A stretch of 15,967 bases of DNA from Eubacteriales bacterium (GTDB lineage: Bacteria > Bacillota_A > Clostridia > Christensenellales > Aristaeellaceae): NCBI GenBank assembly GCA_029974855.1, contig JARKQO010000063.1, positions 1 to 15,967 of the forward strand, read 5' to 3'. The notes under the pieces are model-generated. The model saw only the letters and a list, made by a program, of their open reading frames with translations. It was not told where the DNA came from and made no database searches. Shown piece after piece: positions 68 through 13,804 of this stretch. The first letter of the stretch is position 1. Each line of letters opens with the position of its first letter. Both the position numbers and the translations under genes were made by a program.

Positions 68-856
68 CTACCCCAGATTGGACACGCCGCCGCCGATGGC
101 GATCCGCTGGGGATGCAGCAGCGTCAGCACATTGCCAAGCCCCAAGCCAAAGCTTTCCGCCACGCGGTCGATCTCCGCCAGGGCGAAGGCGTCGCCCGCC
201 TCCGCCGCCTGCCCCAGATGCCGGCAGGTGAGGGGCCCGCCCTGGGCCATTTGGGCCAAAACGCTGGAGGCCGGCACATAACCCGTGCTGTTCAGCCGGC
301 CCTCGATGGCAAAGCCCGAGCAGAGGTTTTCGATCTTCTCCGGCCGCCCCACCTCAGTCCAGGAAGGCACCCAGGTGTGCCCGAAGTACGCGCAGCCCAA
401 GTCCTGCCCACGGATCAGGCGGCCGCCCGTGAACAGCGCCCCGCCGATGCCGCTGCCGATGTTGGTGTAGAAGAAGCCCTCCGTGCCGCGCCCGCTGCCC
501 AGAAGGTATTCCGCATAGCCCCCGCACACCGTGTCGTTTTCCACCACACAGGGCGTCCCAAAGGTCTGCTCCAGGTATGCCCGCAGGGGAAAATCCTCCC
601 ATCCGGCCACCTGCACGGACATCAGGGTGCTGCCGTTTTTGCGGGACACAATGCCCCCAAAGCCGACGCCGATGCCCTGCGGCGGCGCGGGGGAAAGGGC
701 CTCAAGCTCGCGCACCGCCCCCAGGACCCACGCCAGGATGCCCTGGGCCCCCAGGGCCCTATCCACCGCGTGCCAGCGCATGCCCCGCAGGGTTCCATCC
801 GTGTCCAGATAGCAGGCTTGCAGCTTCGTCGCGCCGATCTCCACCCCGATATACAT
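68..856 (-). CDS. ROK family protein, C-terminus cut off by an in-frame TAG
   Basis: This is a ROK-fold sugar kinase or kinase-like protein, 262 residues as it stands. The N-terminal phosphate loop is present but altered (VEIGATK at residues 5-11, where ROK kinases have DxGGTK). The putative catalytic pair N107-D108 (VENDTVCGGYAE), the glycine-rich NIGSGIGGALFTGG segment (132-145) and the late GGGVSNLG motif (255-262) are visible. The zinc-binding CxCGxxGC cluster of classical ROK kinases is missing, although a GH (159-160) remains. ROK proteins normally run about 40-50 residues beyond GGGVS, and here a TAG stops the frame at that point. I chose the ATG at 856 because AAGGGGGAG sits just upstream; the open frame above it lies inside the preceding gene. 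It is the last gene visible in the operon, starting 22 nt after the UroD-family gene. The substrate is unknown. It could be a pseudogene or contain a sequencing error. Confidence 0.8.
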   Translation of the reverse strand: MYIGVEIGATKLQACYLDTDGTLRGMRWHAVDRALGAQGILAWVLGAVRELEALSPAPPQGIGVGFGGIVSRKNGSTLMSVQVAGWEDFPLRAYLEQTFGTPCVVENDTVCGGYAEYLLGSGRGTEGFFYTNIGSGIGGALFTGGRLIRGQDLGCAYFGHTWVPSWTEVGRPEKIENLCSGFAIEGRLNSTGYVPASSVLAQMAQGGPLTCRHLGQAAEAGDAFALAEIDRVAESFGLGLGNVLTLLHPQRIAIGGGVSNLG

Positions 857-878
857 TCCCCGCTCCCCCTTTCCGGCG

Positions 879-2117
879 TCACCCGCGCGGGTAGCCGCCG
901 TTGTCACGCACGGAGCGCAGCATGGCTTCCACATTGGCGGGCGGGACCCCGTACTGCAGGTTGTGCACCGGCGAGAACACAAAGCCGCCGCCAGGCGCGA
1001 AAATGTCCAGGCGCTCCTTGACGTGGCGGTATACCTCCTCCGGCGTGGCGTTTGGCAGCACGCTTTGGGTGTCCGCCCCGCCGCCCCAGAATACCAGCTT
1101 GTCCCCAAACTCGCGCTTCAGCTGCTCCGGGTCCATGCCCGTGGCCGAGGTCTGCACCGGGTTGATGATATCCACGCCGCCTTCGATCATATAGGGCAGG
1201 ATGTTCCGGATGGAGCCGCAGGAGTGGTAGAAGGTCTTGCAGCGGGAGTGGGCGTGGATGTAGCCGTTGATGGTTTTCATGTGGGGCATATACTGGTCCC
1301 GGAACACATCCGGCTGGAACAGCTCGCTGGCCTGGATGCCGTAGTCCATGCCGGATACCGCCACCGCGTCGCAGTAGCGGCCCGCAGCTTCCAGATAGAG
1401 CCTGAAGTTCTCCACCGCTTTTTCCGCGTGGGTGGCCAGAATGTCGTAGGTGTATTCCGGCTCAGTCATCAGCAGCACCAGCCAGTCGGTGATGGTGCAG
1501 TTGGCGTACAGGCCGAAGGTGCTCAGCTGGCCCTTATTGCACGCGCCAAATACCGACAGCTCCGTTTCCCCGTACAGCCGCGCGGCTTCCCGCTGGATGG
1601 TGCGCAGCTCCTCCTCGGTATAGAGGGCGATGGACTCGCCAAAGGCCTGAAGGCTCATGGGCTCAAAATCGTCGCGCATGTGCACGGGGCAGCACCGCTC
1701 AAAATACAGGCCGCCCTTGTTGATCATGGCAAGGTTTTCCCCCTGGCCGTCGCGCAGGTACAAAAACCCGTCGCCCCCGTCCACAGGCGCGAAGTCCCCC
1801 GGCATCAGCACGGTATTGCCCCGGTAGGTGGTCCAGGGCTTCCAGCCCTCGTTCCTCAGCCCCCAGGTCATCACCGGGCTTTCCACCACCGCCACGTCCC
1901 CCATCAGCCACCGCCGCATGGGCTCGTCAATGCGGGCCAGCATCTGAAACTGCTCGTATATCATGGGCGGCAGCGATGCGGGGCTGTACGCCTTTGCCAG
2001 CTCGCAATACTCGTCCATATGGATACCCGTCCATAGGGTGCCGCCGATGTCCAGCGGCACCCGGTCCGCCTCCTGATGGGCCAGGGCCAGCCGGACCCGT
2101 TCCCTGGATGTCATCAT
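879..2117 (-). CDS. UroD/MtaA-family protein (uroporphyrinogen decarboxylase-like)
   Basis: A 412-residue protein of the uroporphyrinogen decarboxylase superfamily (PF01208). The family includes true UroD and the MtaA/MtbA/CmuA-type methyltransferases that move methyl groups between corrinoid proteins and thiols. The N-terminal signature TSRERVRLALAHQEADRVPLD (from residue 3), a YHSCG motif (H298, C300) and the C-terminal GGGFVFSPVHNLQYGVPPANV region are visible. MtaA-type enzymes bind zinc with H-x-C plus a later cysteine; here the later position seems to offer His385 instead. Length exceeds that of haem-pathway UroD (about 350), and no haem genes are nearby. The start overlaps the larA-like stop in ATGA, with AGGAGGTGA 7 nt upstream, so the two are probably translationally coupled. 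No corrinoid protein gene is visible, so the methyl donor or substrate is unknown. I would not call it hemE. Confidence 0.85.
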   Translation of the reverse strand: MMTSRERVRLALAHQEADRVPLDIGGTLWTGIHMDEYCELAKAYSPASLPPMIYEQFQMLARIDEPMRRWLMGDVAVVESPVMTWGLRNEGWKPWTTYRGNTVLMPGDFAPVDGGDGFLYLRDGQGENLAMINKGGLYFERCCPVHMRDDFEPMSLQAFGESIALYTEEELRTIQREAARLYGETELSVFGACNKGQLSTFGLYANCTITDWLVLLMTEPEYTYDILATHAEKAVENFRLYLEAAGRYCDAVAVSGMDYGIQASELFQPDVFRDQYMPHMKTINGYIHAHSRCKTFYHSCGSIRNILPYMIEGGVDIINPVQTSATGMDPEQLKREFGDKLVFWGGGADTQSVLPNATPEEVYRHVKERLDIFAPGGGFVFSPVHNLQYGVPPANVEAMLRSVRDNGGYPRG

Positions 2118-3370
2118 AGCCTCACCTCCTCCGGCAAAGTAGAGCCGCCATAGGGCATCACGATCACGCTGGCGTCGCTCCCCAGGGCCCGCCGGGCGGC
2201 GCGGTAGGCCTCCTCCAGCGTGGGGAAGGGGGTGAAAAAGATGCGCGAAGCAAAGTCCGCGGGCAGGTCGGACACCAGGTACACGCCGCAGCGCTCCATC
2301 ACCAGCCCGATGGCGGCGGCCTTGTGGCCGCCCAGCTCGAAGCGGCGCTGGATTTCCTCCGTCATATACCGGGTGCTGGGGCAGGTGGTCATCCAGCGTT
2401 CAAACACGCCTTCCCCCATGCCCTCGGCGCAGGACGCGCACAGCACGATGACGCCGCCGTCCCGCACGGCGTGCTTGGCGTTATCCAGCGCCTTTTGGGC
2501 CTGATACAGGTTGATATCCTTGGGATAGCCCCCCGGCGACACCAGCACGATATCCGCACGCCTGGGGATGCTGATTTTATAGAGCCTGTCCAGAAAAGCG
2601 CAGCCCTGGCGGTGCGCCCTGACCGCGTCCCCGCAGACGGCGTACAGAATCTCCTTATGCTCGTCCAGCACCACATTGACGATAAAATCCACCGGGCAGC
2701 AGTCCAGCACCTCGTCGATATCCTCGCGGACCGGATTGCCGGCCAGCTTGCCCGCAAAGGCCTCCTGGCGCACCATCATCGAATGGTTGGCTTGTATGGT
2801 GTCCCGGGTGCACACCCCCGGCATGATGGCCTTGGCCCCGCCCGAGAACCCCGCGAAGTAGTGGTATTCGATATTGCCAAGGCAAATGCGCCTGTTGGCC
2901 TGGGCCACGGGCCGGTATACATCGTAGGGGGTGCCCATGGAGGATACGCCCATGCGCACGGTATCCGCAGGGTCGTGGTCCATGCAGCGGACCCGCTCAA
3001 ACACCCTGTCCCCCACCAGCTTTCGCATCTCCGCCTCCGTATGCTTCCTGTGGGAGCCCAGGGCAAAAACGACGCTTACATCCCCCATGGAAACCCCCGC
3101 TGCCTCCAGCTCCTCCAGAAGAGGCGGCAGCACCTGCCACGCCGGAAAGGGGCGCGTGATGTCGCTGGTGACGATGGCCACGCTTTCGCCGGGGCGCACG
3201 ATCTCGCCTACGCGCGGGGTCCCGATGGGGTGGGCCAAAGCCGCCCGCACGGCATCCTGTCCGCGCGGGCCCGCATCCTCCAGTACATTAGGGGTGAGGG
3301 TTGCCACCAGATGCTCCTCTGCCACGGTGGCTTCCTGATAGGTTTTGGCAAACGCCAGCTTCACTTGCAT
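2114..3370 (-). CDS. LarA-type nickel-dependent lactate racemase family protein
   Basis: A 418-residue LarA homologue (DUF2088 plus C-terminal domain). LarA enzymes racemise or epimerise 2-hydroxy acids with a nickel-pincer nucleotide bound covalently to a lysine. The catalytic set known from Lactobacillus plantarum LarA appears complete: D70 and R73 in SDITRP, H107 in GSHR, H170 in YHYFAGFSGG, K180 in GGAKAIMPG, H196 in ANHSMM, and Y289-Q290...K293 in YQAQK. The H-K spacing of 10 and K-H spacing of 16 match the characterised enzyme. The substrate cannot be read off, because the family also covers malate and other hydroxy acids. The cofactor-making larB, larC and larE genes are not in the window. 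The gene begins 10 nt after the E3 gene. Its ribosome binding site TAGGAG includes the E3 stop codon, so it belongs to the dehydrogenase operon. Confidence 0.9.
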   Translation of the reverse strand: MQVKLAFAKTYQEATVAEEHLVATLTPNVLEDAGPRGQDAVRAALAHPIGTPRVGEIVRPGESVAIVTSDITRPFPAWQVLPPLLEELEAAGVSMGDVSVVFALGSHRKHTEAEMRKLVGDRVFERVRCMDHDPADTVRMGVSSMGTPYDVYRPVAQANRRICLGNIEYHYFAGFSGGAKAIMPGVCTRDTIQANHSMMVRQEAFAGKLAGNPVREDIDEVLDCCPVDFIVNVVLDEHKEILYAVCGDAVRAHRQGCAFLDRLYKISIPRRADIVLVSPGGYPKDINLYQAQKALDNAKHAVRDGGVIVLCASCAEGMGEGVFERWMTTCPSTRYMTEEIQRRFELGGHKAAAIGLVMERCGVYLVSDLPADFASRIFFTPFPTLEEAYRAARRALGSDASVIVMPYGGSTLPEEVRL

Positions 3371-3380
3371 ATCGGTACTC

Positions 3381-4742
3381 CTACAGCTTGTGGCAGCTTT
3401 GGTGGTGTACGTCGTGGGCCGCTTCCATGATCATTTCGCTGACGGTGGGGTGCGGGTGGATGGTGTCCGCCAGCTCCTCGATGGTCCCCTCCGCCCGCAT
3501 GACGGCGGCGATTTCACCAATGATATCGGTGGCCCGGGGGGCCATCAGCTGCGCGCCCAGAATCTCGCCCGTGCGGGCGTCGGTCACGATCTTCGCCACG
3601 CCCTCCGCGATGTTCATGATGGCGCTGCGACCGTTGGCGGCCACCGGAAAGGTGCCCAGCTTCACGTCGATGCCCTTGTCCCGGGCCTGGGCCTGGGTGA
3701 GCCCGACGCTGGCGATCTCGGGGGTGGTGTAGATGCACGAGGGCACGATATCATAGCGCATGCGCCGCTGCCCGCCGCAGGCGTTGTGGGCCGCCACCAG
3801 CCCCTGGGCGCTGGCCACATGGGCCAGCTGCATTTTGCCCGTGATGTCGCCGATGGCGTACACATCCGGCACACTTGTGCGCATGGCTTCATCCACCTTC
3901 ACAAAGCCGCGCTCCATGGCCACGCCGCAGGCCTCCAGCCCGATGCCCCCGGTGGCGGGTTTCCGTCCCACCGCTACCACCACCATTTCCGCCTCGGCGC
4001 GCCGCGCCTGCCCGTCCAACTCAAACAGGCAGGCCTTGCCCGCCTCCACGGCCAGCACCTTCGCGCCGGTGTAAAGGGTCACGTTCCTTTTCTCCAGGGT
4101 TTTGCGCATCGCCGCCGCGATCTCCCCGTCCGTGTCCGGCAAAATTTGGGGGGCCATCTCCAGAACCGTCACCTCCACATCCAGCGAGGCAAACAGCGTG
4201 GCAAACTCCACGCCGATGACCCCGCCGCCGATGATGACGCAGCTCCCCGGCAACGCCCGCATGGCCAGCACATCGTCGGAGGTTTTGGCCGTTTCGATGC
4301 CCGCAATGGGCAAGGTGGCGGGGCTGGAGCCCGTGGCCAAAATGACGCGCCCGGCGGTGAGGGTTTCTTCGCCCACCTTTAGGGTATGGGCGTCCAACAG
4401 CCGCCCCTCGGCGGGAAACACGGCGATCCGGTTGCCCTTCATCAGCCCAGCGATGCCCTGCCGCAGCTTTTGGACCACGCTGTCCTTGCGCCGGGCCATT
4501 TTTTCATAGTCAAAGGCAAGCCCCTCCACATGGATGCCAAGGCCCTCCGCCTCTTTGACGGCATGGTACAGCTCCGCGCTGTGCAGCAGCGCCTTGGTGG
4601 GGATGCAGCCCCGGTTGAGGCAGGTGCCGCCCAGCTCCCGCTTTTCCACCAACGCCACCGTTTTGCCCAGCTTCGCGGCGCAAATGGCGGCCACATACCC
4701 CCCCGGGCCGCCGCCCAAGACGGCGATATCAAACTGGTTCAT
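3381..4742 (-). CDS. lpdA: Dihydrolipoyl dehydrogenase (E3)
   Basis: A 453-residue flavoprotein that reoxidises the dihydrolipoyl group of E2 and passes electrons to NAD+. The FAD-binding VLGGGPGGYVAA lies at residues 8-19, the redox-active disulfide GGTCLNRGC has C41 and C46, and an NAD-binding GGGVIGVEFA follows in mid-protein. The C-terminal HPHPTVSE supplies the H431/E436 pair that serves the partner active site in the dimer. There is no N-terminal lipoyl domain, unlike some Gram-positive E3 proteins. The ATG at 4742 is preceded by GAGGGAGG, and the longer open frame above it overlaps the E2 gene and carries no family sequence. It is the fourth gene of the complex operon, 50 nt after E2, and its TAG stop overlaps the ribosome binding site of the LarA-like gene. 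Confidence 0.96.
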   Translation of the reverse strand: MNQFDIAVLGGGPGGYVAAICAAKLGKTVALVEKRELGGTCLNRGCIPTKALLHSAELYHAVKEAEGLGIHVEGLAFDYEKMARRKDSVVQKLRQGIAGLMKGNRIAVFPAEGRLLDAHTLKVGEETLTAGRVILATGSSPATLPIAGIETAKTSDDVLAMRALPGSCVIIGGGVIGVEFATLFASLDVEVTVLEMAPQILPDTDGEIAAAMRKTLEKRNVTLYTGAKVLAVEAGKACLFELDGQARRAEAEMVVVAVGRKPATGGIGLEACGVAMERGFVKVDEAMRTSVPDVYAIGDITGKMQLAHVASAQGLVAAHNACGGQRRMRYDIVPSCIYTTPEIASVGLTQAQARDKGIDVKLGTFPVAANGRSAIMNIAEGVAKIVTDARTGEILGAQLMAPRATDIIGEIAAVMRAEGTIEELADTIHPHPTVSEMIMEAAHDVHHQSCHKL

Positions 4743-4792: not shown

Positions 4793-6112
4793 TTACAGCA
4801 GCAGGTACGGGTTTTCCAGATACTCCTTGACCCGCGCCAAAAACCGGGCGGCGGGCGCGCCGTCCACCACCCGGTGGTCGTAGGTGAGGGTCAGGCACAT
4901 CATGGACCGGATGACGATCTCATCATCCACAACCACGGGCTGCTTTTCGATTTTGCCCACGCCCAAAATGCCGGATTCCGGCGTGTTGAGGATCGGCACA
5001 AAGCACTCGATGCCAAACATCCCAAGGTTACTGACCGTAAAGCTGGAGCCCGTGTACTCCGCCGGCGTCAGCTTGCCATCCTTGGCTTTTTCCGCCAGCT
5101 CGGCTGCGCAGGCACTGAATTCTTCCAGGCGCAGCAGGTCCGCGTCCCGGATCACCGGCACGATGAGCCCGGTGGGCGTATCCACCGCCATGCCCAGGTG
5201 CACGTAGTCCTTTTGCAGAATCCCCCCGTCCGTCAACTCCGCGTTCACCATGGGGAACTCCAGCAAAGCCCGCGCCGTGCACAGCAAGATGATGTCGTTG
5301 TAGGAAACCTTGCGCCCAGCCGCCTTCAAGCCCTCCCGCAGCTGGACCGCCCGGCTCATATCCACCTTGATTTGGTGGGAGAGCTGGGCGTGGGTGCGCA
5401 GGGATTCCATCATCTTCTCCCCGATCATACGGCGCTTGCCCTCGTAGGGTAACAGCGTGCCGCGCCGCGCCTCCTGCGCGCCCCTGCGGGCAGCCACCAG
5501 CGCGTCGATATCGGCCCGGGTCACCTTGCCCTGGGGGCCGCTGCCCGCCGCGTCGCTGACCTCCACGCCCTCCTGGCGGGCTATGGCACGGGCCAAAGGC
5601 GTGGCCTTCCGGGGCGTATAGGCCAGCACATCCCGCTCGATGATCAGCCCCTCCGGCCCGCTGCCGGGAATCTGCTCCACCCGCAGGCCCTTTTCCTCGG
5701 CCCGCAACCTGGCCCTGGGCGTGGCGTAGACCGGGCCGGCAGGCGCGGCCACCGGCGCGTTGGATGATCCCGCCGCCTGCGCGGGCGCGGCGGCCGGCAC
5801 AACCGGAAGCTCCCCGGCGGGAGTGTTCGCCGAGGGCGGCTTCCCCTGTGCCAGCAGCCCGGAGATATCCTCGCCGTCTTGTCCCACAATGGCGATGGTT
5901 TCCGTGATGGGCACGGTTGCGCCTTCCGGCGCGATGATTTTCAGCAGCTTGCCGGAGACGGCCGCGTCGATGGTGATCACCAGCTTATCCGTTTCCATTT
6001 CAAAGAGGGGCTGGCCGCTTACGCAGTTTTCGCCCTCCCGCACGAGCCATCTGGTGATGGTCCCCTCCGTCATTTGAAGGCCCTGCTTGGGCAGGATGAT
6101 CCTTTCCGCCAT
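4793..6112 (-). CDS. acoC: E2 dihydrolipoyl acyltransferase with two peripheral-subunit-binding domains
   Basis: The 439-residue acyltransferase core of the complex. It accepts the acyl group from E1 on a swinging lipoyl arm and hands it to CoA. One lipoyl domain (residues 1-80) has the modification lysine K43 in ETDKL. An Ala/Pro-rich linker (about 92-128) follows. Two consecutive peripheral-subunit-binding domains come next, at about 129-165 (ATPRARLRAEEKG...GSGPEG) and 170-207 (ATPLARAIARQEG...GSGPQGKVTRADID). The catalytic domain (about 220-439) ends in DHRVVDG with H413 and D417. Most bacterial E2 proteins have a single binding domain. The start is supported by AAGGAGG 8 nt upstream, and only 3 nt separate it from the E1-beta stop. 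The symbol acoC assumes the complex is acetoin-type; a pyruvate or branched-chain role is possible. Confidence 0.93.
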   Translation of the reverse strand: MAERIILPKQGLQMTEGTITRWLVREGENCVSGQPLFEMETDKLVITIDAAVSGKLLKIIAPEGATVPITETIAIVGQDGEDISGLLAQGKPPSANTPAGELPVVPAAAPAQAAGSSNAPVAAPAGPVYATPRARLRAEEKGLRVEQIPGSGPEGLIIERDVLAYTPRKATPLARAIARQEGVEVSDAAGSGPQGKVTRADIDALVAARRGAQEARRGTLLPYEGKRRMIGEKMMESLRTHAQLSHQIKVDMSRAVQLREGLKAAGRKVSYNDIILLCTARALLEFPMVNAELTDGGILQKDYVHLGMAVDTPTGLIVPVIRDADLLRLEEFSACAAELAEKAKDGKLTPAEYTGSSFTVSNLGMFGIECFVPILNTPESGILGVGKIEKQPVVVDDEIVIRSMMCLTLTYDHRVVDGAPAARFLARVKEYLENPYLLL

Positions 6113-6115
6113 ACC

Positions 6116-7105
6116 TCACGCCTCCTTATGATACAGCGCCTGCTTCGCGGCTTGAACGATCTGCGCCACCTGCGGCACCACCGCGTTTTCCAGGCCGAGA
6201 TTGAAGGGCAGCGTGCATTGCTTCGCCCCAAGGCGGATGGGCGGCGCGTCCAGGTAGCGGAACGCCTTCTCCACCACCTGGGAGGCCACCTCAGCCCCCC
6301 AGCCGCCCTCCCGGTGGGCTTCGTGCACGGTAATCAGCCGCCCGGTTTTCCGCACGCTGTTCACAATGGTGTCCATATCCAGCGGCACCAGCGTAAGGGG
6401 GTCGATCACTTCCGCACTGACGCCTTCCTTCTCAAGGATTTCGGCGGCCTCCAGCGCCTTGCCCACATACAGGAGGTTGGCGACGATGGTCACATCCTTG
6501 CCCTCTTTTTTTACGGCGGCCTTGCCAAAGGGGATGGCAAATTCCGGGTCGTCCGGCACCTCCCCCTTGGTGGCGTAGAGCGCCTTGTGCTCGAAAAACA
6601 TCACCGGGTTATCGTCCCGGATCGCCGTGCGCAGCAGGCCCGCCGCCTCCGCCGGGGTGGACGGGCAAGCTACCTTCAAGCCCGGGATGTGCATAAACAG
6701 GGATTCCACGCTCTGGCTGTGCTGGCCCGCGTTGCCGCGCCCGATGCCCTGCTGCCCGCGAATCACCAGCGGCACCTTGGCCTTGCCGCCGAACATATAG
6801 CGGATCTTCGCCGCCTGGTTTAAAATCTGGTCCATGGCCACATAGGTGAAATCCATATACATCAGTTCCACGATAGGCCGCATGCCCGCCGTGGCCGCGC
6901 CCACCCCCGCGCCCACGAAGGTCGCCTCGGTGATGGGCGTGTTGCGCACCCGCTCGGTACCAAACTCCTTGGCCAGGTCCCGGGTGCAGCCAAAGATGCC
7001 GCCCAGCACCTCGATATCCTCGCCCATGATAAACACCCTGTCGTCACGCCGCATTTCCTGGGCGATGGCGTCGCGGATAGCCACCGCGTATGTCTTGATG
7101 CTCAT
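6116..7105 (-). CDS. acoB: E1-beta subunit of acetoin/2-oxo-acid dehydrogenase
   Basis: The 329-residue beta subunit of a heterotetrameric thiamine-diphosphate E1. The family landmarks are GEDIEVLGG (28-36), TPITEATFVG with E60 (the glutamate that activates the thiamine aminopyrimidine), RGQQGIGRGNAGQHSQS with H129 (116-132), and ACPSTPAEAAGLL. The C-terminal transketolase domain carries the usual EVIDPLTLVPLD. The length and the close partnership with a 319-residue alpha subunit fit AcoB-like or Gram-positive branched-chain types. The gene lies 15 nt after E1-alpha with AAGGGGGG as ribosome binding site. The substrate choice among acetoin, pyruvate and branched 2-oxo acids cannot be settled from this subunit alone. 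Confidence 0.93.
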   Translation of the reverse strand: MSIKTYAVAIRDAIAQEMRRDDRVFIMGEDIEVLGGIFGCTRDLAKEFGTERVRNTPITEATFVGAGVGAATAGMRPIVELMYMDFTYVAMDQILNQAAKIRYMFGGKAKVPLVIRGQQGIGRGNAGQHSQSVESLFMHIPGLKVACPSTPAEAAGLLRTAIRDDNPVMFFEHKALYATKGEVPDDPEFAIPFGKAAVKKEGKDVTIVANLLYVGKALEAAEILEKEGVSAEVIDPLTLVPLDMDTIVNSVRKTGRLITVHEAHREGGWGAEVASQVVEKAFRYLDAPPIRLGAKQCTLPFNLGLENAVVPQVAQIVQAAKQALYHKEA

Positions 7106-8128: not shown

Positions 8129-8157
8129 TTGTATTGCAAGCATCGATATGGTATCAT
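8129..8157 (+). promoter_or_regulatory. Probable gntR promoter with a palindromic element over the -10
   Basis: TTGTAT (8129-8134), a 17-nt spacer and TATCAT (8152-8157, five of six matches to TATAAT) make a plausible sigma-70-type promoter 27 nt before the GntR start. The -10 lies inside the imperfect palindrome ATGGTATCAT (8148-8157; four of the five base pairs are complementary). FCD-type GntR proteins bind short GT...AC palindromes of this style, so autoregulation is reasonable. Both the promoter and the operator are inferences from pattern. Confidence 0.5.
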
Positions 8158-8183
8158 GGGGAAAACGCCAAGTGAGGTCCGCC

Positions 8184-8885
8184 ATGCTGACACCCCTGAA
8201 AAAAACGAAGCTCCACGAGCAGGTTATAAAGCAGCTCATGGATCTGATCCTCTCCGGCGAGCTGAAGGCCGGGGACCATCTGCCCACGGAGCGGGAGCTT
8301 TCCGCGCAGCTTGGGGTAAGCCGCACCGCCATCCGGGAAGCCCTGGCGCAGATGGAGCGCGGAGGCTATCTGCAAACCCGGGCCGACGGCGGAGCCACCG
8401 TGCGGGAGGTCACCTTCGAGACCATTTTGCCCTATGTGAGCGGCGTGCTGGGCGCGGACCGCCGCCTACTTGCGGACCTGTTGGGCGTGCGCAAGCTGCT
8501 GGAGGCGGAAATGGCCAGCGATGCGGCCAAGAACATCACCTCCGAGAAGGCGGAGCGGCTCCGGGCCCTGGCGGATCAGTTTTCCGCCGAGATCCGGGAG
8601 GGAAAAACCGGCCTTTCCGCCGATAACCGCTTCCACAGCTGCATCGCCGAGCTGGCCCAGAACAGCGCCATGCAGCTGATCAACGAGATGTGCTCCGGCC
8701 TGCTGTCCGATACCCGGCTGGCGACCCTGCGGGTGCCCCAGCACCGGGCCCAGACCATTCAGGACCATTATGGCATCTGCGAGGCCATCGCGGCGGGGGA
8801 CCCGCAGCTGGCCGCCTCCCGTATGCGGGAGCATCTGACCCGGGCGCACCGGGTGCTGCTGGCCTCCGGCGAGCCCGGCGCGTAA
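8184..8885 (+). CDS. GntR-family transcriptional regulator, FCD (FadR/PdhR-type) subfamily
   Basis: A 233-residue repressor or activator with an N-terminal winged helix-turn-helix (about 8-75: LHEQVIKQLMDLILSGELKAG, then LPTERELSAQLGVSRTAIREAL, the GntR signature) and a C-terminal all-helical FCD ligand-binding domain (about 95-225). The FCD metal ligands fit D147, H151, H195 and H217, so a small carboxylate bound through a metal is a likely effector, as in PdhR or LldR. The ATG at 8184 has GAGG 6 nt upstream; an in-frame ATG at 8148 lies on the promoter and adds no family sequence. It is divergent from the dehydrogenase operon and convergent with the ligase alpha gene. By position it probably controls the dehydrogenase operon and perhaps both flanking units. 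The effector is unknown. Confidence 0.93.
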   Translation: MLTPLKKTKLHEQVIKQLMDLILSGELKAGDHLPTERELSAQLGVSRTAIREALAQMERGGYLQTRADGGATVREVTFETILPYVSGVLGADRRLLADLLGVRKLLEAEMASDAAKNITSEKAERLRALADQFSAEIREGKTGLSADNRFHSCIAELAQNSAMQLINEMCSGLLSDTRLATLRVPQHRAQTIQDHYGICEAIAAGDPQLAASRMREHLTRAHRVLLASGEPGA

Positions 8886-8922: not shown

Positions 8923-8950
8923 GCCCCGGCGCATGCCGCCGGGGCTTTTT
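8923..8950 (+). terminator. Rho-independent terminator of the GntR gene
   Basis: A 9-bp perfect GC stem (GCCCCGGCG at 8923-8931 with its complement at 8937-8945), a 5-nt loop and TTTTT (8946-8950) stand 38 nt after the GntR stop codon. The T-tract overlaps the stop codon of the convergent ligase alpha gene (8949-8951). No T-tract exists on the other strand, so it acts for plus-strand transcription only. Confidence 0.88.
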
Positions 8951-9824
8951 AGCGGATGCCCAGGCCCTGTAAAATGTCGCCAATCTGGTAGGTGCTCTCG
9001 GCAATGTACGCGCCCGCGGCCCGCAGCGCGCTTTCCTTGCTCTGGGCGCTGCCGGTGCCGTCCGCCGCCACGATGGCCCCGGCATGGCCCATGGACCTGC
9101 CCTTGGGCGCGTTCTTACCCGCGATGAACGCCACAACGGGCTTGGCGCTGTGCTCCATCAGGTACGCCGCCGCCAACTCCTCCTCGTTTCCGCCGATTTC
9201 CCCGATCATCACGATGGCTTTGGTTTCGGGGTCGGCCTCAAAATCGGGCAGCAGGTCCACAAAGGTGGAGCCGGGGATCATATCCCCGCCCACGCCGATG
9301 GCGGTGGAGATGCCGATGCCAAGCTCCGTCAGGCGGAAGGCCGTTTCATAGCCGTTGGTGGCGCTGCGCGTCATCAGCCCTACGCCGCCCTGGGTGAAAA
9401 TCCTGTGGGCCATAAAGCCCGCCTTGGATTTGCCCGGGGAAATGATGCCGAAGGAATTGGGGCCGAAGAGCCTGAGCCCCTTTTGCCGCGCCAGGGCATA
9501 GCAGCGCATCATGTCATGCACGGGCACATGCTCGGCGATGGTCATGATCAGCGGCACCCCCGCGTCGCAGGCCTCATATACCCCCGCCGCCGTAAACCTG
9601 GCGGGCACGAAGAGGACCGTGGCGTTGGCCCGGGTGGCTTCCATGGCCTCCTTGACGGTGTTGTACACGGGCACGCCCAGCACATCCTGCCCCGCCTTGC
9701 CGGGGGTGACCCCGGCCACCACGTTTACCCCATAGTCCAGCATCTGCCGGGTATGGAAGGTGCCCTCGCGGCCCGTGATGCCCTGCACCATCAGGCGCGT
9801 GTTTTGATCCACCAAAATGCTCAT
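8949..9824 (-). CDS. Succinyl-CoA synthetase alpha-like subunit of an ADP-forming acyl-CoA ligase
   Basis: The 291-residue alpha subunit, which carries CoA binding and the phosphohistidine of a SucCD-type ligase interconverting acyl-CoA + ADP + Pi with acid + CoA + ATP. The N-terminal CoA-binding fold has QGITGREGTFHT (14-25), GEIGG lies near 208-212, and the phospho-acceptor is H247 in KGRSMGHAGAI. Several normally strict SucD stretches are altered: GPNSFGIISPG where GPNCPGIITPG is usual, and MTRSATNGYE where a SRSGTLTYE-like segment is usual. The fold and catalysis look intact, but the acid may not be succinate. Candidates are acetate, malate, sulfoacetate or another short acid. It lies 23 nt after the beta gene, with GGAGGAGGG before the ATG. 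I withhold the symbol sucD because of the substrate doubt. Confidence 0.88.
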   Translation of the reverse strand: MSILVDQNTRLMVQGITGREGTFHTRQMLDYGVNVVAGVTPGKAGQDVLGVPVYNTVKEAMEATRANATVLFVPARFTAAGVYEACDAGVPLIMTIAEHVPVHDMMRCYALARQKGLRLFGPNSFGIISPGKSKAGFMAHRIFTQGGVGLMTRSATNGYETAFRLTELGIGISTAIGVGGDMIPGSTFVDLLPDFEADPETKAIVMIGEIGGNEEELAAAYLMEHSAKPVVAFIAGKNAPKGRSMGHAGAIVAADGTGSAQSKESALRAAGAYIAESTYQIGDILQGLGIR

Positions 9825-9847: not shown

Positions 9848-10999
9848 TCAGGCCTGGCGCTTTTGGGCCAGAATGTCAACGGCGTCCGGGATACTGCCGG
9901 CCGTTGTGATCTGGTCGGAAACGCGCTGTACGATTTCCATGGCGCACTCCTTGTTGGTGCCCTCCATGCGGATCACCACCGTCTTTTTCTCCGGCTGCTC
10001 CAAAAGCGCCAGCCGCACGCCCTCCACCACCTCGTCGCAGCGGGTGATTCCGCCGAAGATGCAGATCAGCAGCGTGTGCACCCGGCCGGAGGAAAGCAGA
10101 ATGCGCACCGCTTCCTTGATGCGCTCCGAGGTGGCCCCGCCGCCCAGGTCCAAGGCGGCGGCTACGGCCATGCCCTTTTGGGCCAGCAGGTCGATGCAGC
10201 TCATCAACAGGCCGGAGCCGTTGCTCATCACGACGATGTCGCCCTCTTCCTCCACGGGGATATAGAGGAAGTCGTATTTCCGGGCTTCCAGCACCAGCGG
10301 GTCCTCCTGGAGATGGTCCCGGCAGGCCACGATGTCCGGCAGCTTGCATAAGGCCGAATCGTCGATGTCGATCTTGCCGTCCAGCGCCACCAGGTCTCCG
10401 GCCTCGTCCGTGGCCAGGGGGTTGATTTCCACCAGCAAAGCGTTGTAATCGGTAAAGAGCCGGTAAAGGTTCCGCACCATGGCCCCGAAGGGCTGCCGGC
10501 AGCTTTTGTCCGCGCCGGTCACATCCAGCAGATAGTCGATGTGGTAGTCCTGCACCCCCACAAAGGGGTTCACCGTCGCCCTGGCGATGGCCCCGGGGTC
10601 GGTTTTGGCGGTTTCCTCGATCTCCATGCCGCCCTTGGCCGAGAAGATGATCATGGGGGATTTGGAGCCCCTGTCCAGCAAAATGGACAGGTACCACTCC
10701 CGGGTGATCTCCGCCTTTTCCACGATCAGCAGCTCACGGGCCGTCAGCCCCCGGATGTCCTTGAACAGCAACTCCCGCGCCCGGGCGATAGCCTCTTCCT
10801 CGCTGTCCGCAAACTGGATGCCTCCCGCCTTGCCCCGCCCGCCGATCTGCACTTGGGCCTTGATCACAACCGGATACCGAAGGCCCGCCGCTTTCACGTT
10901 TTCCGGTATGGTGGCCAGCGTATCCACCACGCAGCCCTTTTTCACCGGCAGGCCGTACTTGGCGAACAGCTCCTTTGCCTGATATTCCAGCAGTTTCAA
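9848..10999 (-). CDS. Succinyl-CoA synthetase beta-like subunit (ATP-grasp), TTG start
   Basis: The 383-residue beta subunit, giving the nucleotide-binding ATP-grasp domain and part of the acid site. It shows KLLEYQAKELFAKYGLP at the N-terminus, KAQVQIGGRGKAGG (48-61), the magnesium/nucleotide region EINPLATDEAGDLVALDGKIDIDD, then a C-terminal ligase domain with ALDLGGGATSE, IFGGITRCD and IRMEGTNKE. All are variants of standard SucC motifs. The start is a TTG at 10999: AAGGAGG stands 8 nt upstream and the frame meets a TGA a little further up with no ATG between. It follows the aldehyde dehydrogenase by 33 nt and precedes the alpha subunit by 23 nt, so the three form one unit that can link an aldehyde, its CoA thioester and ATP. 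The exact acid is unknown. Confidence 0.9.
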   Translation of the reverse strand: MKLLEYQAKELFAKYGLPVKKGCVVDTLATIPENVKAAGLRYPVVIKAQVQIGGRGKAGGIQFADSEEEAIARARELLFKDIRGLTARELLIVEKAEITREWYLSILLDRGSKSPMIIFSAKGGMEIEETAKTDPGAIARATVNPFVGVQDYHIDYLLDVTGADKSCRQPFGAMVRNLYRLFTDYNALLVEINPLATDEAGDLVALDGKIDIDDSALCKLPDIVACRDHLQEDPLVLEARKYDFLYIPVEEEGDIVVMSNGSGLLMSCIDLLAQKGMAVAAALDLGGGATSERIKEAVRILLSSGRVHTLLICIFGGITRCDEVVEGVRLALLEQPEKKTVVIRMEGTNKECAMEIVQRVSDQITTAGSIPDAVDILAQKRQA

Positions 11000-11032: not shown

Positions 11033-12400
11033 TCATTCGCTCCAGATTTCCTCATCCGTGGGCTGCCGCCACGAGGGCTTTTCAAAGGCGATGCGCTGGG
11101 TGTTGTAAAAATGTCTGTAGGAGAGGTTTTCGCTGATGGAATTGTTGCCCCAGCTGCCACAGCCCAAGGTGGTGGTGGGGCTCAGGCCGTTGGCGAACGC
11201 CCCGCCGTTCATGGTGGCGCAGCTTTGGTTCACCAGCACCCGGCTCACCGGCAGGTGCAAGCCCGCGTACACCAGACGCTCCCGGTTGTTGGACTGGATG
11301 GAAACCGAATGCCCGGCGCCCTCGTACAGCAGGTTCCGCCTGGCGATCTCCACGGCTTCCTCCCAGGTGTCATAGGCATAGGCGCTCATGAAGGGGCACA
11401 TCTTCTCCTTGCTGAGCACATCCTCCGCGCCGGCCTTTTCCGCCTTCACGATGACCAGCTTCGTGCCCTGGGGCACCTGCACGCCCGCGGCGGCGGCCAG
11501 CTTCTCCACGTCCTGCCCCACCAGGTGCTTGTTCATCACCCCCCCCGGAAAGATGGCGTTCCGCCACAATTCCACCTCCGCCGGGTCCTGGGTGTAGTAC
11601 GCGCCCTGCTTGATAAACTCGTCCATGATCCGGCTGTAGGTGGCCCGGGGCGCGATGATGGTCTGGTCGGCGGAGCAGATGATGCCGTTGTCAAAGATGC
11701 GGGAGGCCACGGCCTTGGTCACGGCGGCGGGGATGTCGATGTCGTCGTCGTAAATGCCCTGCACATTGCCCGGCCCCACCCCAAAGCTGGGCTTGCCGGA
11801 GGAATAGGCGCTTTTGACCATGGCGCTGCCGCCGGTGGCCACCACGATGTCGCAGGCGCTCATGAGCATCTGGGTCATCTCCACAGACGAATCCTCCAGG
11901 GTCAGGAAGATATCCTTGGGGCAGCCCAGCTTTTCAAATTCCGCGTCGAACAGCTCCTTGACCCGGGCCGTGCAGCGCAGGCCCCGGGGATGCGGGGCCA
12001 CGATGATGGTGTTGGCGGATTTGACGGCGAACATCGCGTTGCACATGGGGGTTACGATGGGGTTGGTGCAGGGCAGCACCGCGCACACCACGCCCATGGG
12101 CTTGGCGATCTCCACAAGCCCCTCCTCGGGTATCTCCCGCAGCACCCCCACGGTTTTTTTGCCCTTCAGCGCGTTCCAGATGATGCGGGCCTTGCCCTTG
12201 TTCTTAGTGACCTTGTTCTCGTACACGCCCATGCGGGTCTCTTCCACAGCCAGTTGGGCCAGCGGCTCCGCGTTGTCATAGACCGCCTTGGCCATGGCGC
12301 GCACGACGGCGTCCAGCTGTTGCTGCGTATAGCCTTCCAATACCGCCTGGGCCTTGCGGCTGCGGGCCACCAGCGCCTGGATCGCTTCCCTGTTTTCCAT
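11033..12400 (-). CDS. CoA-acylating aldehyde dehydrogenase
   Basis: A 455-residue enzyme that interconverts an aldehyde + CoA + NAD(P)+ with an acyl-CoA + NAD(P)H. It resembles the EutE/AdhE N-terminal/CoA-dependent succinate-semialdehyde dehydrogenase group. The catalytic cysteine is C242 in FDNGIICSADQTII (236-249). GVVCAVLPCTNP (103-114) and ATGGSAMVKSAY (188-199) belong to the coenzyme-binding part, and LGCGSWGNN is the usual late motif. There is no iron alcohol dehydrogenase domain, so it is not AdhE. I chose the ATG at 12400: AGGAGG lies exactly 8 nt upstream, whereas the in-frame GTG at 12407-12409 overlaps that site. Substrate options are acetaldehyde, succinate semialdehyde or sulfoacetaldehyde. 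The neighbours (acetoin-type complex and ADP-forming ligase) make acetaldehyde the simplest guess. Confidence 0.9.
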   Translation of the reverse strand: MENREAIQALVARSRKAQAVLEGYTQQQLDAVVRAMAKAVYDNAEPLAQLAVEETRMGVYENKVTKNKGKARIIWNALKGKKTVGVLREIPEEGLVEIAKPMGVVCAVLPCTNPIVTPMCNAMFAVKSANTIIVAPHPRGLRCTARVKELFDAEFEKLGCPKDIFLTLEDSSVEMTQMLMSACDIVVATGGSAMVKSAYSSGKPSFGVGPGNVQGIYDDDIDIPAAVTKAVASRIFDNGIICSADQTIIAPRATYSRIMDEFIKQGAYYTQDPAEVELWRNAIFPGGVMNKHLVGQDVEKLAAAAGVQVPQGTKLVIVKAEKAGAEDVLSKEKMCPFMSAYAYDTWEEAVEIARRNLLYEGAGHSVSIQSNNRERLVYAGLHLPVSRVLVNQSCATMNGGAFANGLSPTTTLGCGSWGNNSISENLSYRHFYNTQRIAFEKPSWRQPTDEEIWSE

Positions 12401-12402
12401 GT

Positions 12403-12414
12403 GGATCACCTCCT
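12403..12414 (-). promoter_or_regulatory. Ribosome binding site with 12-nt match to the 16S rRNA 3' end
   Basis: On the minus strand the bases read AGGAGGTGATCC, which is the full complement of the conserved 16S 3' tail (GGATCACCTCCT). AGGAGG is 8 nt from the ATG of the aldehyde dehydrogenase. This decides the start codon and predicts very strong ribosome recruitment. Confidence 0.8.
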
Positions 12415-12533: not shown

Positions 12534-13706
12534 TCAGATCCGCGCTACGCTGCTGCTGCGGGCGGCATCGGCCACCGCTTTGGCCACCGTGGTGGCGACG
12601 CGCGGGTCAAAGGGCGCGGGAATCACATACCCCGGGCTCAGCTCGTTGTCGGCCACCAGCCCGGCGATGGCATAGGCCGCGGCGATCTTCATCTCGTCGT
12701 TGATATCGCTGGCGCGCACATCCAGCGCGCCCCGGAATCTCCCCGGAAACGCAAGCACGTTGTTGATCTGGTTGGCAAAGTCCGAGCGCCCGGTGCCCAC
12801 CACGGCGGCCCCGGCCTTGAGGGCCAGATCGGGCATGATCTCGGGGGTGGGGTTGCTCATGGCAAACACGATGGGGTCCTTGTTCATGGCGCGGACCATG
12901 TCCTCGGTTACGATGCCCGGACCGGAAACGCCGATGAGGATATCCGCGCCCTTCAGCGCGTCGGCGATGGAGCCCTTTTTCATCTGCCGGTTGGAAATCT
13001 TCGCCATTTCGGCCTTGGCGGGGTTCAGCCCGTCGCGCCCTTCCCAGATGGCGCCCTGCCGGTCGCACAAAATCACGTTCTTCAGCCCCATGTTCATCAG
13101 CAGCTTGGTGCAGGCCACGCCGGCCGCCCCCGCGCCCACGACCACGCATTCCTGCTCCGCCAGGTTCCGCCCGGTGACCTTGAGGGCGTTGATCATGGCT
13201 GCGGCGGTCACCACCGCGGTGCCGTGCTGGTCGTCATGAAAAATCGGGATATCGCAAAGGGCCTTCAGCTTTTCCTCGATCTCGAAGCAGCGGGGGGCGG
13301 AGATGTCCTCCAGGTTCACGCCGCCAAGGCTGCCGCTGATCAGGTACACCGTGCGGACGATATCGTCCACTTCCTTGGATTTGACGCACAGCGGTATGGC
13401 GTCCACATCGCCAAAGGCCTTGAACAGCACGCACTTGCCTTCCATCACCGGCATGCCCGCCTCGGGGCCGATATCCCCAAGGCCCAGCACCGCCGTACCG
13501 TCCGTGACCACGGCCACGGTGTTCCAGCGGCGGGTGAGCTCATAGCTCTTGGTTACGTCCTTTTGGATTTCCAGGCAGGGCTCGGCCACGCCGGGGGTAT
13601 AGGCCAGGGAAAGGTCCTCCTTGGTCTTGACGGGCACGGTGGTCACAACCTCGATTTTGCCCTTCCATTCGTAATGCTTGCGCAGGCTCTCCGCTCGGTA
13701 GTCCAT
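12534..13706 (-). CDS. Malic enzyme, short NAD(P)-dependent form
   Basis: A 390-residue oxidative decarboxylase turning malate into pyruvate and CO2 with NAD(P) reduction. The catalytic tyrosine Y36 is in LSLAYTPGVA, the lysine-containing MPVMEGKCVLFKAFG is at 85-99, the metal-binding FHDDQHGTAVV at 156-166, and the nucleotide fold VVVGAGAAGVA at 188-198. SNPTPEIMPD is the usual late substrate-side motif. The length matches the short bacterial form without a phosphotransacetylase domain. The ATG at 13706 has GGAGGAAAG upstream; an upstream in-frame ATG (13751) adds a tail without family sequence. It follows the ribokinase-like gene by 80 nt and has its own possible promoter in that gap. Cofactor preference (NAD or NADP) cannot be told by eye. 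Confidence 0.94.
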   Translation of the reverse strand: MDYRAESLRKHYEWKGKIEVVTTVPVKTKEDLSLAYTPGVAEPCLEIQKDVTKSYELTRRWNTVAVVTDGTAVLGLGDIGPEAGMPVMEGKCVLFKAFGDVDAIPLCVKSKEVDDIVRTVYLISGSLGGVNLEDISAPRCFEIEEKLKALCDIPIFHDDQHGTAVVTAAAMINALKVTGRNLAEQECVVVGAGAAGVACTKLLMNMGLKNVILCDRQGAIWEGRDGLNPAKAEMAKISNRQMKKGSIADALKGADILIGVSGPGIVTEDMVRAMNKDPIVFAMSNPTPEIMPDLALKAGAAVVGTGRSDFANQINNVLAFPGRFRGALDVRASDINDEMKIAAAYAIAGLVADNELSPGYVIPAPFDPRVATTVAKAVADAARSSSVARI

Positions 13707-13741
13707 TTCGCTTTCCTCCGATGTGCAGCGTTCATGGGCCC

Positions 13742-13770
13742 ATCTTACCATCTAGGTTTTGGGAGCGCAA
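13742..13770 (-). promoter_or_regulatory. Candidate promoter of the malic enzyme gene
   Basis: On the minus strand TTGCGC (13765-13770) and TAAGAT (13742-13747) are separated by 17 nt, with a start site expected near 13735 and a ribosome binding site shortly after. The matches are only moderate (three and four of six). Its place directly downstream of the 27-bp palindrome adds some weight. Confidence 0.4.
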
Positions 13771-13777
13771 GGGCTTT

Positions 13778-13804
13778 GGGAATGGTTTATAATAAACCAT
13801 TCCC
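13778..13804 (-). repeat. 27-bp perfect inverted repeat overlapping the ribokinase-like stop codon
   Basis: Two 13-nt arms (13778-13790 and 13792-13804) are exact inverse complements around a single central base. The core is A/T-rich (TTTAT/ATAAA), with GGGAATGG and CCATTCCC outside. One arm encodes the last codons of the ribokinase-like gene. There is no T-tract on either side. It can be read as a regulatory operator for the malic enzyme promoter, whose -35 lies 7 nt away, or as an RNA hairpin that ends or protects the upstream transcript. Confidence 0.75.

What the first reader, a model, noticed from the sequence alone, without database searches (positions are those of the whole stretch)
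68..3370. LarA-UroD-ROK trio attached to a 2-oxo-acid dehydrogenase operon
A nickel-pincer racemase homologue, a UroD/MtaA-family protein and an atypical ROK protein follow the E3 gene with a 10-nt gap, an ATGA overlap and a 22-nt gap. Such packing implies joint expression with the E1-E2-E3 complex. I know of no pathway combining these families. A 2-hydroxy acid epimerised by LarA might be prepared for, or produced from, the reaction of the complex, with the UroD protein doing a decarboxylation or a C1 transfer. This is the best candidate in the window for an undescribed pathway.
Basis: partly seen in the sequence, partly recalled or inferred. Interest (0 to 1): 0.75.

Follow-up and report, generated by a model that had tools for sequence, protein, structure and literature searches.

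The report
Malate-racemase gene in a catabolic operon
An uncultured bacterium related to clostridia carries a nickel malate-racemase gene, a methyltransferase-like gene and a sugar-kinase-like gene right behind its pyruvate-dehydrogenase-type genes, which suggests a malate-to-acetyl-CoA route inside a larger, still unassigned sugar or sugar-acid pathway.

Summary
The trio is real: LarA (3370-2114), UroD-like (2117-879) and ROK (856-68) follow E3 with a 10-nt gap, an ATGA overlap and a 22-nt gap; one relative (L001) keeps order and packing under purifying selection. LarA passes the curated cut-off for the LarAH6 malate racemase (547.6 vs 500 bits) and has its signature residues; malic enzyme lies within 1 kb of LarA in 23 of 73 related loci and is in this window. 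Likely route: malate, racemase, malic enzyme, pyruvate, E1-E3, acetyl-CoA. The surrounding genes (SucD-type acylating aldehyde dehydrogenase, SucCD, kinases; in relatives also DeoC, dehydrogenases, importers) form a recurrent clostridial module whose starting compound is unknown. UroD is probably a corrinoid methyltransferase (MtaA first by fold, His-Cys-His site candidate), not a decarboxylase. The window's ROK stops early near the contig end; intact copies exist. Cofactor genes LarB/C/E were mostly not found in the relatives searched. A known racemase in a new setting; the pathway is inference.

The parts
14762..15706 (-). second ROK kinase of the window, with the CxCGxxGC motif
   Evidence: NCBIfam TIGR00744 173 bits, below cut-off 260; motif found
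13787..14725 (-). ribokinase-like PfkB kinase
   Evidence: TIGR02152 279.5 bits, below cut-off 299.65
12534..13751 (-). malic enzyme
   Evidence: Pfam malic 107 and Malic_M 97 bits; NF009501 366 bits, below that long model's cut-off 1178
11033..12409 (-). CoA-acylating aldehyde dehydrogenase of the SucD (succinate semialdehyde) type
   Evidence: best solved relative 8cei, 518 bits; Lys70 and Ser243 equivalents kept
9848..10999 (-). SucC, succinate-CoA ligase beta
   Evidence: NF001913 371 bits, cut-off 370; below TIGR01016 (358.9 vs 375.55)
8949..9824 (-). SucD, succinate-CoA ligase alpha
   Evidence: NF004230 373.5 bits, cut-off 336
8148..8885 (+). GntR/FCD regulator, divergent from E1a
   Evidence: Pfam GntR and FCD; same arrangement in L001
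7121..8080 (-). E1 alpha of a 2-oxo-acid dehydrogenase complex
   Evidence: Pfam E1_dh 294 bits; TIGR03182 373.7 bits, just below cut-off 393.85
6116..7105 (-). E1 beta
   Evidence: NF006667 374 bits, cut-off 321
4793..6112 (-). E2 with lipoyl domain
   Evidence: Pfam 2-oxoacid_dh, E3_binding, Biotin_lipoyl
3381..4742 (-). E3 dihydrolipoyl dehydrogenase
   Evidence: TIGR01350 545 bits, cut-off 409 (given one codon longer, from 4745)
2114..3370 (-). LarA homologue, LarAH6-type nickel-dependent malate racemase
   Evidence: NF052593 547.6 bits, cut-off 500; Mar2 6d6z 392 bits; signature residues
879..2117 (-). UroD/MtaA-superfamily protein, likely corrinoid methyltransferase, with conserved H297, C299 and H384 (numbering of P0001, which starts at the second Met)
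   Evidence: URO-D 59 bits; mtaA_cmuA 48 bits, below cut-off 235; conservation; fold; alignment to MtaA
68..856 (-). atypical ROK protein without CxCGxxGC, truncated (262 aa; L001 orthologue 314 aa)

Best explanation
The gene 3370-2114 encodes a nickel-pincer malate racemase that works with the adjacent pyruvate-dehydrogenase-type complex and the malic enzyme of the same window. Malate of the wrong configuration is racemised, malic enzyme decarboxylates it to pyruvate, and E1-E2-E3 turns pyruvate into acetyl-CoA. This is the lower end of a larger carbohydrate or hydroxy-acid catabolic module, in which the SucD-type acylating aldehyde dehydrogenase plus SucCD turn an aldehyde (most likely a carboxylated C4 one) into an acid with ATP formation, and the ROK and ribokinase-like enzymes act on the incoming sugar. 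The UroD-like protein is an accessory methyltransferase of a sub-lineage, probably moving a methyl group with a corrinoid protein encoded elsewhere. Shown by computation: family membership, residues, conserved gene order, dN/dS. Inferred: substrate, direction, pathway order and the UroD role.
For: NF052593 547.6 bits over cut-off 500. Mar2 is the best solved relative. His-Lys at the malate-racemase positions in 80 of 80 aligned rows (78 loci, Mar2 and the window), and the cofactor and catalytic positions read are kept in the window (positions from PMC7583248 section 7 and PMC11770544 section 6). Malic enzyme (55% identity or more) within 1 kb of LarA on the same strand in 23 of 73 loci and in this window. 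LarA in the stretch of 4 of 5 family genomes that have the E2, malic enzyme behind E3 in the fifth. Acylating dehydrogenase: C. kluyveri SucD is the best solved match; in G903 a 62% relative sits beside Fe-ADH- and HpaB-family genes, compatible with the 4-hydroxybutyrate route. UroD: MtaA is the top fold match and its H-x-C aligns with MtaA.
Against: LarA is optional: of 14 class-wide genomes with the acylating dehydrogenase only 2 carry LarA in the stretch fetched, plus G001 on another contig; some of these stretches are short. E3 lies beside LarA in only 2 of 73 LarA loci. E1 alpha is just below the pyruvate dehydrogenase cut-off, so another 2-oxo acid or acetoin is open. LarB, LarC and LarE, which make the nickel cofactor, were mostly not found (LarC 1 of 6, LarE 0 of 6, LarB 1 of 7 genomes over cut-off). 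The Lys70/Ser243 test is weak, since three 33-34% relatives keep both. The malic enzyme lies in the neighbouring gene group, beyond the divergent regulator, not in the LarA operon itself. No corrinoid-protein gene was recognised in the window.
Confidence: 0.55

Rival explanations
1. The module is a route from a hydroxy-semialdehyde to malate: a C4 hydroxy acid or deoxy-sugar product is oxidised to malate semialdehyde, acylated to malyl-CoA by the SucD-type dehydrogenase, cleaved to malate plus ATP by the SucCD pair, racemised by LarA, and sent through malic enzyme and E1-E3 to acetyl-CoA.
For: It gives nearly every enzyme of the core a place. G842 has AldDH-SucC-SucD-LarA-alcohol dehydrogenase-GntR behind a TRAP transporter, with no E1-E3 in the stretch. 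AldDH and SucCD resemble C4-acid enzymes. LarA and malic enzyme alternate behind E3.
Against: Activity on malyl-CoA or malate semialdehyde is not shown. The malate-CoA ligase model scores below the succinate one (263.5 vs 371 bits). No upstream enzyme making malate semialdehyde is identified. No paper describing it was found.
Confidence: 0.25
2. Deoxyribose-type pathway: kinase plus DeoC give glyceraldehyde 3-phosphate and acetaldehyde; the acylating dehydrogenase makes acetyl-CoA; SucCD acts as an ADP-forming acetate-CoA ligase; LarA is a side function.
For: DeoC over its cut-off in L001 and L118 (261.6 and 181 vs 117.3 bits); DeoC-like genes near module genes in G001, G017, G077, G369, G683 and G980; ribokinase-like gene in the window; sugar-importer (Rbs-like) genes in G077, G017 and G335.
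Against: AldDH is closest to a succinate-semialdehyde enzyme rather than to acetaldehyde enzymes, and SucCD scores as succinate ligase. It does not explain malate racemase or malic enzyme.
Confidence: 0.2
3. E1-E2-E3 is an acetoin-type dehydrogenase whose aldehyde product feeds the acylating dehydrogenase; LarA, UroD and ROK are a separate passenger unit sharing the promoter.
Against: E1 beta passes a pyruvate dehydrogenase subfamily model; E1 alpha's best solved relative is mitochondrial PDH E1 alpha; malic enzyme can stand in LarA's place behind E3. Known acetoin dehydrogenases were not compared.
Confidence: 0.15

Closest known systems
LarAH6/Mar2 malate racemase (Thermoanaerobacterium thermosaccharolyticum; PDB 6d6z; NF052593)
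   Same: Passes the curated cut-off; cofactor, catalytic and His-Lys positions match; malic-enzyme context was already noted for this group (PMC7583248, passages)
   Different: Phe in place of Mar2 Lys173; lies behind a 2-oxo-acid dehydrogenase operon; activity not measured
MtaA and other UroD-superfamily corrinoid methyltransferases (4ay7; CdmB 9rui)
   Same: Top fold match; H-x-C aligned with MtaA; weak profile matches to CdmB (its C-terminal part only) and MtaA
   Different: His where MtaA has its last Cys; about 70 residues longer than MtaA; far below the mtaA_cmuA cut-off; no corrinoid protein recognised in the operon. PMC13222342 reports that CdmB needs no zinc (passages)
CoA-acylating succinate semialdehyde dehydrogenase SucD of Clostridium kluyveri (8cei)
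   Same: 518 bits over the full length; Lys70, Ser243, Cys242 and His364 kept
   Different: Ser for Thr365; sits with SucCD and E1-E3 instead of 4-hydroxybutyrate genes
ROK family kinases
   Same: Pfam ROK 118 bits; Asn-Asp near residue 105-110 kept
   Different: CxCGxxGC absent from it and from all 120 listed proteins of its search; window copy truncated

Membership tests
LarAH6 nickel-dependent malate racemase | score over the curated NF052593 cut-off | tested here: met
   547.6 vs 500 bits
LarAH6 nickel-dependent malate racemase | NPN-binding Arg/Lys/His (R74, K181, H197 of Mar2) and catalytic Asp, two His, Lys | tested here: met
   Asp, Arg, His171, Lys181, His197 and Lys294 equivalents identical in the window; the other catalytic His was read by eye in the alignment (GSHRKH vs GYHRKH), since my index fell one residue before it
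LarAH6 nickel-dependent malate racemase | His/Gln then Lys at the positions of LarA W358/T359 | tested here: met
   His-Lys in 80 of 80 rows, window included
LarAH6 nickel-dependent malate racemase | genome makes NPN (LarB, LarC, LarE) | tested here: inconclusive
   own genome not held; relatives mostly negative, many of them drafts
LarAH6 nickel-dependent malate racemase | malate racemisation activity | not testable with these tools
   needs an assay
MtaA/CmuA methyltransferase | score over the TIGR01463 cut-off | tested here: not met
   47.9 vs 235.4 bits
MtaA/CmuA methyltransferase | His-Cys-Cys metal site | tested here: not met
   His and Cys aligned, third position His
UroD superfamily (PF01208) | Pfam cut-off and fold | tested here: met
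   59.4 vs 23.9 bits; model matches MtaA and UroD structures
uroporphyrinogen decarboxylase (HemE) | hit to a HemE model | tested here: not met
   none among the 4 NCBIfam hits at E<=1e-3
pyruvate dehydrogenase complex | E1 alpha over an equivalog cut-off | tested here: inconclusive
   E1 alpha 373.7 vs 393.85; E1 beta 374 vs 321
succinate-CoA ligase | SucC and SucD over cut-offs | tested here: met
   371 vs 370 (NF001913) and 373.5 vs 336 (NF004230); SucC below TIGR01016 (358.9 vs 375.55)
ROK kinase | CxCGxxGC zinc motif (recalled) | tested here: not met
   0 of 120 listed proteins, the window's copy among them

The most novel reading that the evidence does not exclude
An undescribed anaerobic pathway in Clostridia that turns a deoxy-sugar or hydroxy acid through a hydroxy C4 semialdehyde and its CoA thioester to malate with substrate-level ATP, fixes the malate configuration with a nickel racemase, and oxidises it to acetyl-CoA; in the window lineage a His-Cys-His UroD-type methyltransferase adds the use of O-methylated substrates.
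Probability: 0.2. Interest if true: 0.7.

Novelty: new variant of a known kind. Interest (0 to 1): 0.42.

Why it matters
It assigns the striking gene to malate racemisation and so gives a testable substrate. It also exposes a recurrent clostridial module (acylating aldehyde dehydrogenase, SucCD, E1-E3, with LarA or malic enzyme) for which the searches showed no described pathway, and a UroD-superfamily branch with a conserved His-Cys-His metal-site candidate.

Tried and rejected
Decarboxylase role for UroD: not favoured; no HemE model among its NCBIfam hits and MtaA first by fold, with decarboxylases close behind. UroD as a fixed partner of LarA: rejected as a general rule (3 of 13 close LarA clusters; 3 of 73 loci within 3 kb, two of them with only 29-31% relatives). 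My rough estimate is that one or two such neighbours would arise by chance in genomes with many UroD paralogues, so recurrence is not claimed. Mobile-element origin: no match for UroD in phages, none confirmed for LarA in viral contigs, no tRNA or Rfam hit in the window. A plasmid search with E1 alpha gave only relatives under 60% identity. UroD contexts: in the 8 stretches fetched around 35-43% relatives (of 18 genomes other than G001 with such a hit) none held a LarA or AldDH hit; one lies near a GH95 gene (L172) and one near a B12-binding protein (L170); other neighbours were judged by eye only. Terminator scan: on the - strand there are hits inside the LarA and UroD coding regions; 13 were found against 6.2 expected over the 9 kb scanned, which I do not interpret. 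Inverted repeats in the GntR-E1a gap gave only short ones.
Full report
Observation. The three genes are present as described. LarA 3370-2114, UroD-like 2117-879 and ROK 856-68 lie on the - strand behind E1a-E1b-E2-E3 (8080-3381), with a 10-nt gap, an ATGA overlap and a 22-nt gap. A GntR/FCD gene (8148-8885, +) diverges from E1a. Beyond it, also on the - strand, lie SucD, SucC, an acylating aldehyde dehydrogenase (AldDH), malic enzyme, a ribokinase-like gene and a second ROK gene. A GC-rich terminator-like hairpin sits between the ends of GntR and SucD (8923-8945), which suggests two neighbouring transcription units; malic enzyme is in the other unit than LarA.

Conservation. L001 (Eubacteriales MAG, JAJFVI010000183.1) has GntR and E1a-E1b-E2-E3-LarA-UroD-ROK in the same order, at 72-93% identity, with the 10-nt gap before LarA, the ATGA overlap and a 23-nt gap before ROK. 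The operon goes on there with an Asp/Glu-racemase-family gene, DeoC (261.6 bits, cut-off 117.3) and DUF4432. dN/dS window against L001: E1a 0.047, E1b 0.037, LarA 0.106, UroD 0.046, ROK 0.127; dS is 0.96 to 2.28, so the values are rough. Close copies are rare in the genomes held: among 150 relatives of L001's genome 52 had a LarA match, only L001's own above 60% identity.

Is it a trio? Among 13 LarA clusters at 73% identity or more other than the window's own (P0122-P0134), a ROK orthologue (68% or more to the L001 ROK) is listed on a contig of the same length in 8 (11132, 24051, 49071, 97459, 24966, 61694, 43868, 64754), a UroD orthologue (82% or more) in 3 (11132, 24051, 156211). The 11132 contig is L001 itself. 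I matched lengths by eye. Length identity is circumstantial, only the longest contig of each cluster is shown, only the best 120 proteins are listed, and one LarA contig (2762) is too short to hold the others. LarA-ROK is thus the steadier pair and UroD an addition. In 396 genomes drawn from the order of L001's genome, UroD at E<=1e-85 was found only in that genome; in 381 of the class, 19 had one at E<=1e-70, the 18 others at 34-43% identity.

LarA. It exceeds the curated cut-off for LarAH6 malate racemase (547.6 vs 500) and stays below those of LarAH5, LarAH10 and lactate racemase. The best solved relative is Mar2. Residues at the cofactor, catalytic and substrate positions given in PMC7583248 (section 7 read) and PMC11770544 (section 6 read) match; the His-Lys pair typical of malate racemases is in 80 of 80 aligned rows, 78 of them loci that were fetched by similarity to this LarA. 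One substrate-loop residue differs (Phe where Mar2 has Lys173). In the 73 loci malic enzyme lies within 1 kb on the same strand in 23, E3 directly before LarA in 2 (L001, L002), UroD within 3 kb in 3 (L001, L069, L072); 64 of the 73 have at least 1 kb on both sides. PMC7583248 had already linked this group with malic enzyme (passages).

The module. A search for the E2 in 308 genomes of the family gave 5 at E<=1e-100. Their stretches hold E1a-E1b-E2-E3 with LarA right behind E3 (G001, G369), about 0.5 kb behind it (G017, where SucCD lie further on and no AldDH hit was seen), about 8 kb on after importer and dehydrogenase genes (G077), or malic enzyme right behind E3 (G335). AldDH-SucC-SucD precede E1a in G077, G369 and G335; in G001 they follow malic enzyme on a separate short contig (L149). 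In a class-wide sample 14 of 391 genomes had the AldDH at E<=1e-120. Of these 14, 8 have SucC beside it and 5 also E1a-E1b in the same stretch; LarA is in the fetched stretch of 2 (G997, G842), and on another contig in G001; the other six (G903, G983, G121, G143, G958, G671) have no SucC hit. Four of the 14 stretches are under 12 kb, so absence there is weak. Recurrent partners are DeoC-like, ribokinase-like, MDR and SDR dehydrogenases, a UlaG-like hydrolase, GntR and ROK. In G842 AldDH-SucCD-LarA-MDR-GntR follows a TRAP transporter without E1-E3 in the stretch.

AldDH. The closest solved protein is C. kluyveri succinyl-CoA reductase. The residues reported to hold the distal carboxylate, Lys70 and Ser243 (PMC10249356, passages), are kept in the window and in 19 of 20 relatives aligned (21 loci given, no hit in L117): 16 of 17 at 45% identity or more, L148 having Leu for Ser243, and also 3 of 3 at 33-34%, so the test does not discriminate well. 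In G903 a 62% relative sits beside Fe-ADH- and HpaB-family genes, which I read from general knowledge as the 4-hydroxybutyrate route; the 4-hydroxybutyrate dehydrogenase model stays below its cut-off (116.6 vs 500). So a carboxylated C4 aldehyde is the better guess, not a proof.

UroD. The AlphaFold2 model (mean pLDDT 92.1) matches MtaA first (4ay8, 4ay7; TM 0.68-0.70 by target length), then uroporphyrinogen decarboxylases; the E-values are about tenfold apart, so fold alone does not separate them well. A profile search finds CdmB (E 0.0005, C-terminal part) and MtaA (E 0.007), a decarboxylase at E 0.1. In 120 sequences, the window's among them, H297, C299, D315 and H384 are 99-100% conserved. 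H297 and C299 align with the H-x-C of MtaA and H384 with its last Cys; that these are the MtaA zinc ligands is partly recalled. PMC10418091 (passages) gives His-Cys-Cys for S-methyltransferases and carboxylates or non-coordinating residues in place of Cys for O-methyltransferases; a third His is neither. Relatives lie beside B12-binding proteins in L072 (LarA, B12-binding protein, UroD in a row) and L170. G001 has a free-standing B12-binding protein on another contig that also carries two URO-D genes. A corrinoid methyltransferase is the best guess, substrate unknown.

ROK. The window copy ends at a TAG 67 nt from the window start; the window length equals the contig length listed for its UroD (15967). 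The frame after the stop, translated apart, still resembles the L001 ROK, so this is either a recent truncation or an error near the contig end; intact copies exist in relatives.

Cofactor supply. LarC was over cut-off in 1 of 6 genomes (G017), LarE in 0 of 6 (one 97-bit sub-threshold hit in G002, C. hongkongensis), LarB in 1 of 7 (G842). Five of the six (not G335) and all seven have a LarA seen here. Many are drafts and the window's genome is not held, so this is open.

Literature. Searches listed no paper that I recognised as describing this module; some searches asked for it most directly. I read passages or sections of PMC7583248, PMC11770544, PMC10418091, PMC13222342 and PMC10249356 only. 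Abstract starts (listing only) show dihydroxybutyrate routes built synthetically in which malate semialdehyde is counted often.

Verdict. Real, conserved in one close genome read directly, mostly explained by malate metabolism, with an unassigned pathway around it. The pathway reading is inference; the enzyme-family calls are computed.

Noticed in passing
window 68-70: ROK gene interrupted by an early stop close to the contig end; the 11 closest listed orthologues are 306-316 aa.
   Followed up: partly
L001 9027-11132: The operon continues with an Asp/Glu racemase-family gene, DeoC and DUF4432, beyond where the window ends.
   Followed up: partly
genomes G001, G002, G017, G077, G369 (LarB, LarC, LarE) and G997, G842 (LarB only): LarA-bearing genomes in which the NPN cofactor genes were mostly not detected over cut-off; where the cofactor would come from is unexplained.
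   Followed up: partly
L072 9209-13146: Tissierellales: an aldolase-like gene (by eye), LarA, a B12-binding protein and a UroD-like gene in a row.
   Followed up: partly
L069 1527-7761: Actinomycetota MAG: DeoC/LacD-family aldolase, UroD-like (31%) and LarA (44%) within about 6 kb.
   Followed up: partly
window 8923-8945: GC-rich hairpin with T run between the ends of the convergent GntR and SucD genes, terminator-like.
   Followed up: no
L119 7760-9066: CRISPR-like repeat array read through as repetitive ORFs downstream of the G077 module (by eye).
   Followed up: no
G121, G706, G751, G926, G735, G851: 20-38 first-look UroD-superfamily candidates per genome in some Clostridia.
   Followed up: partly
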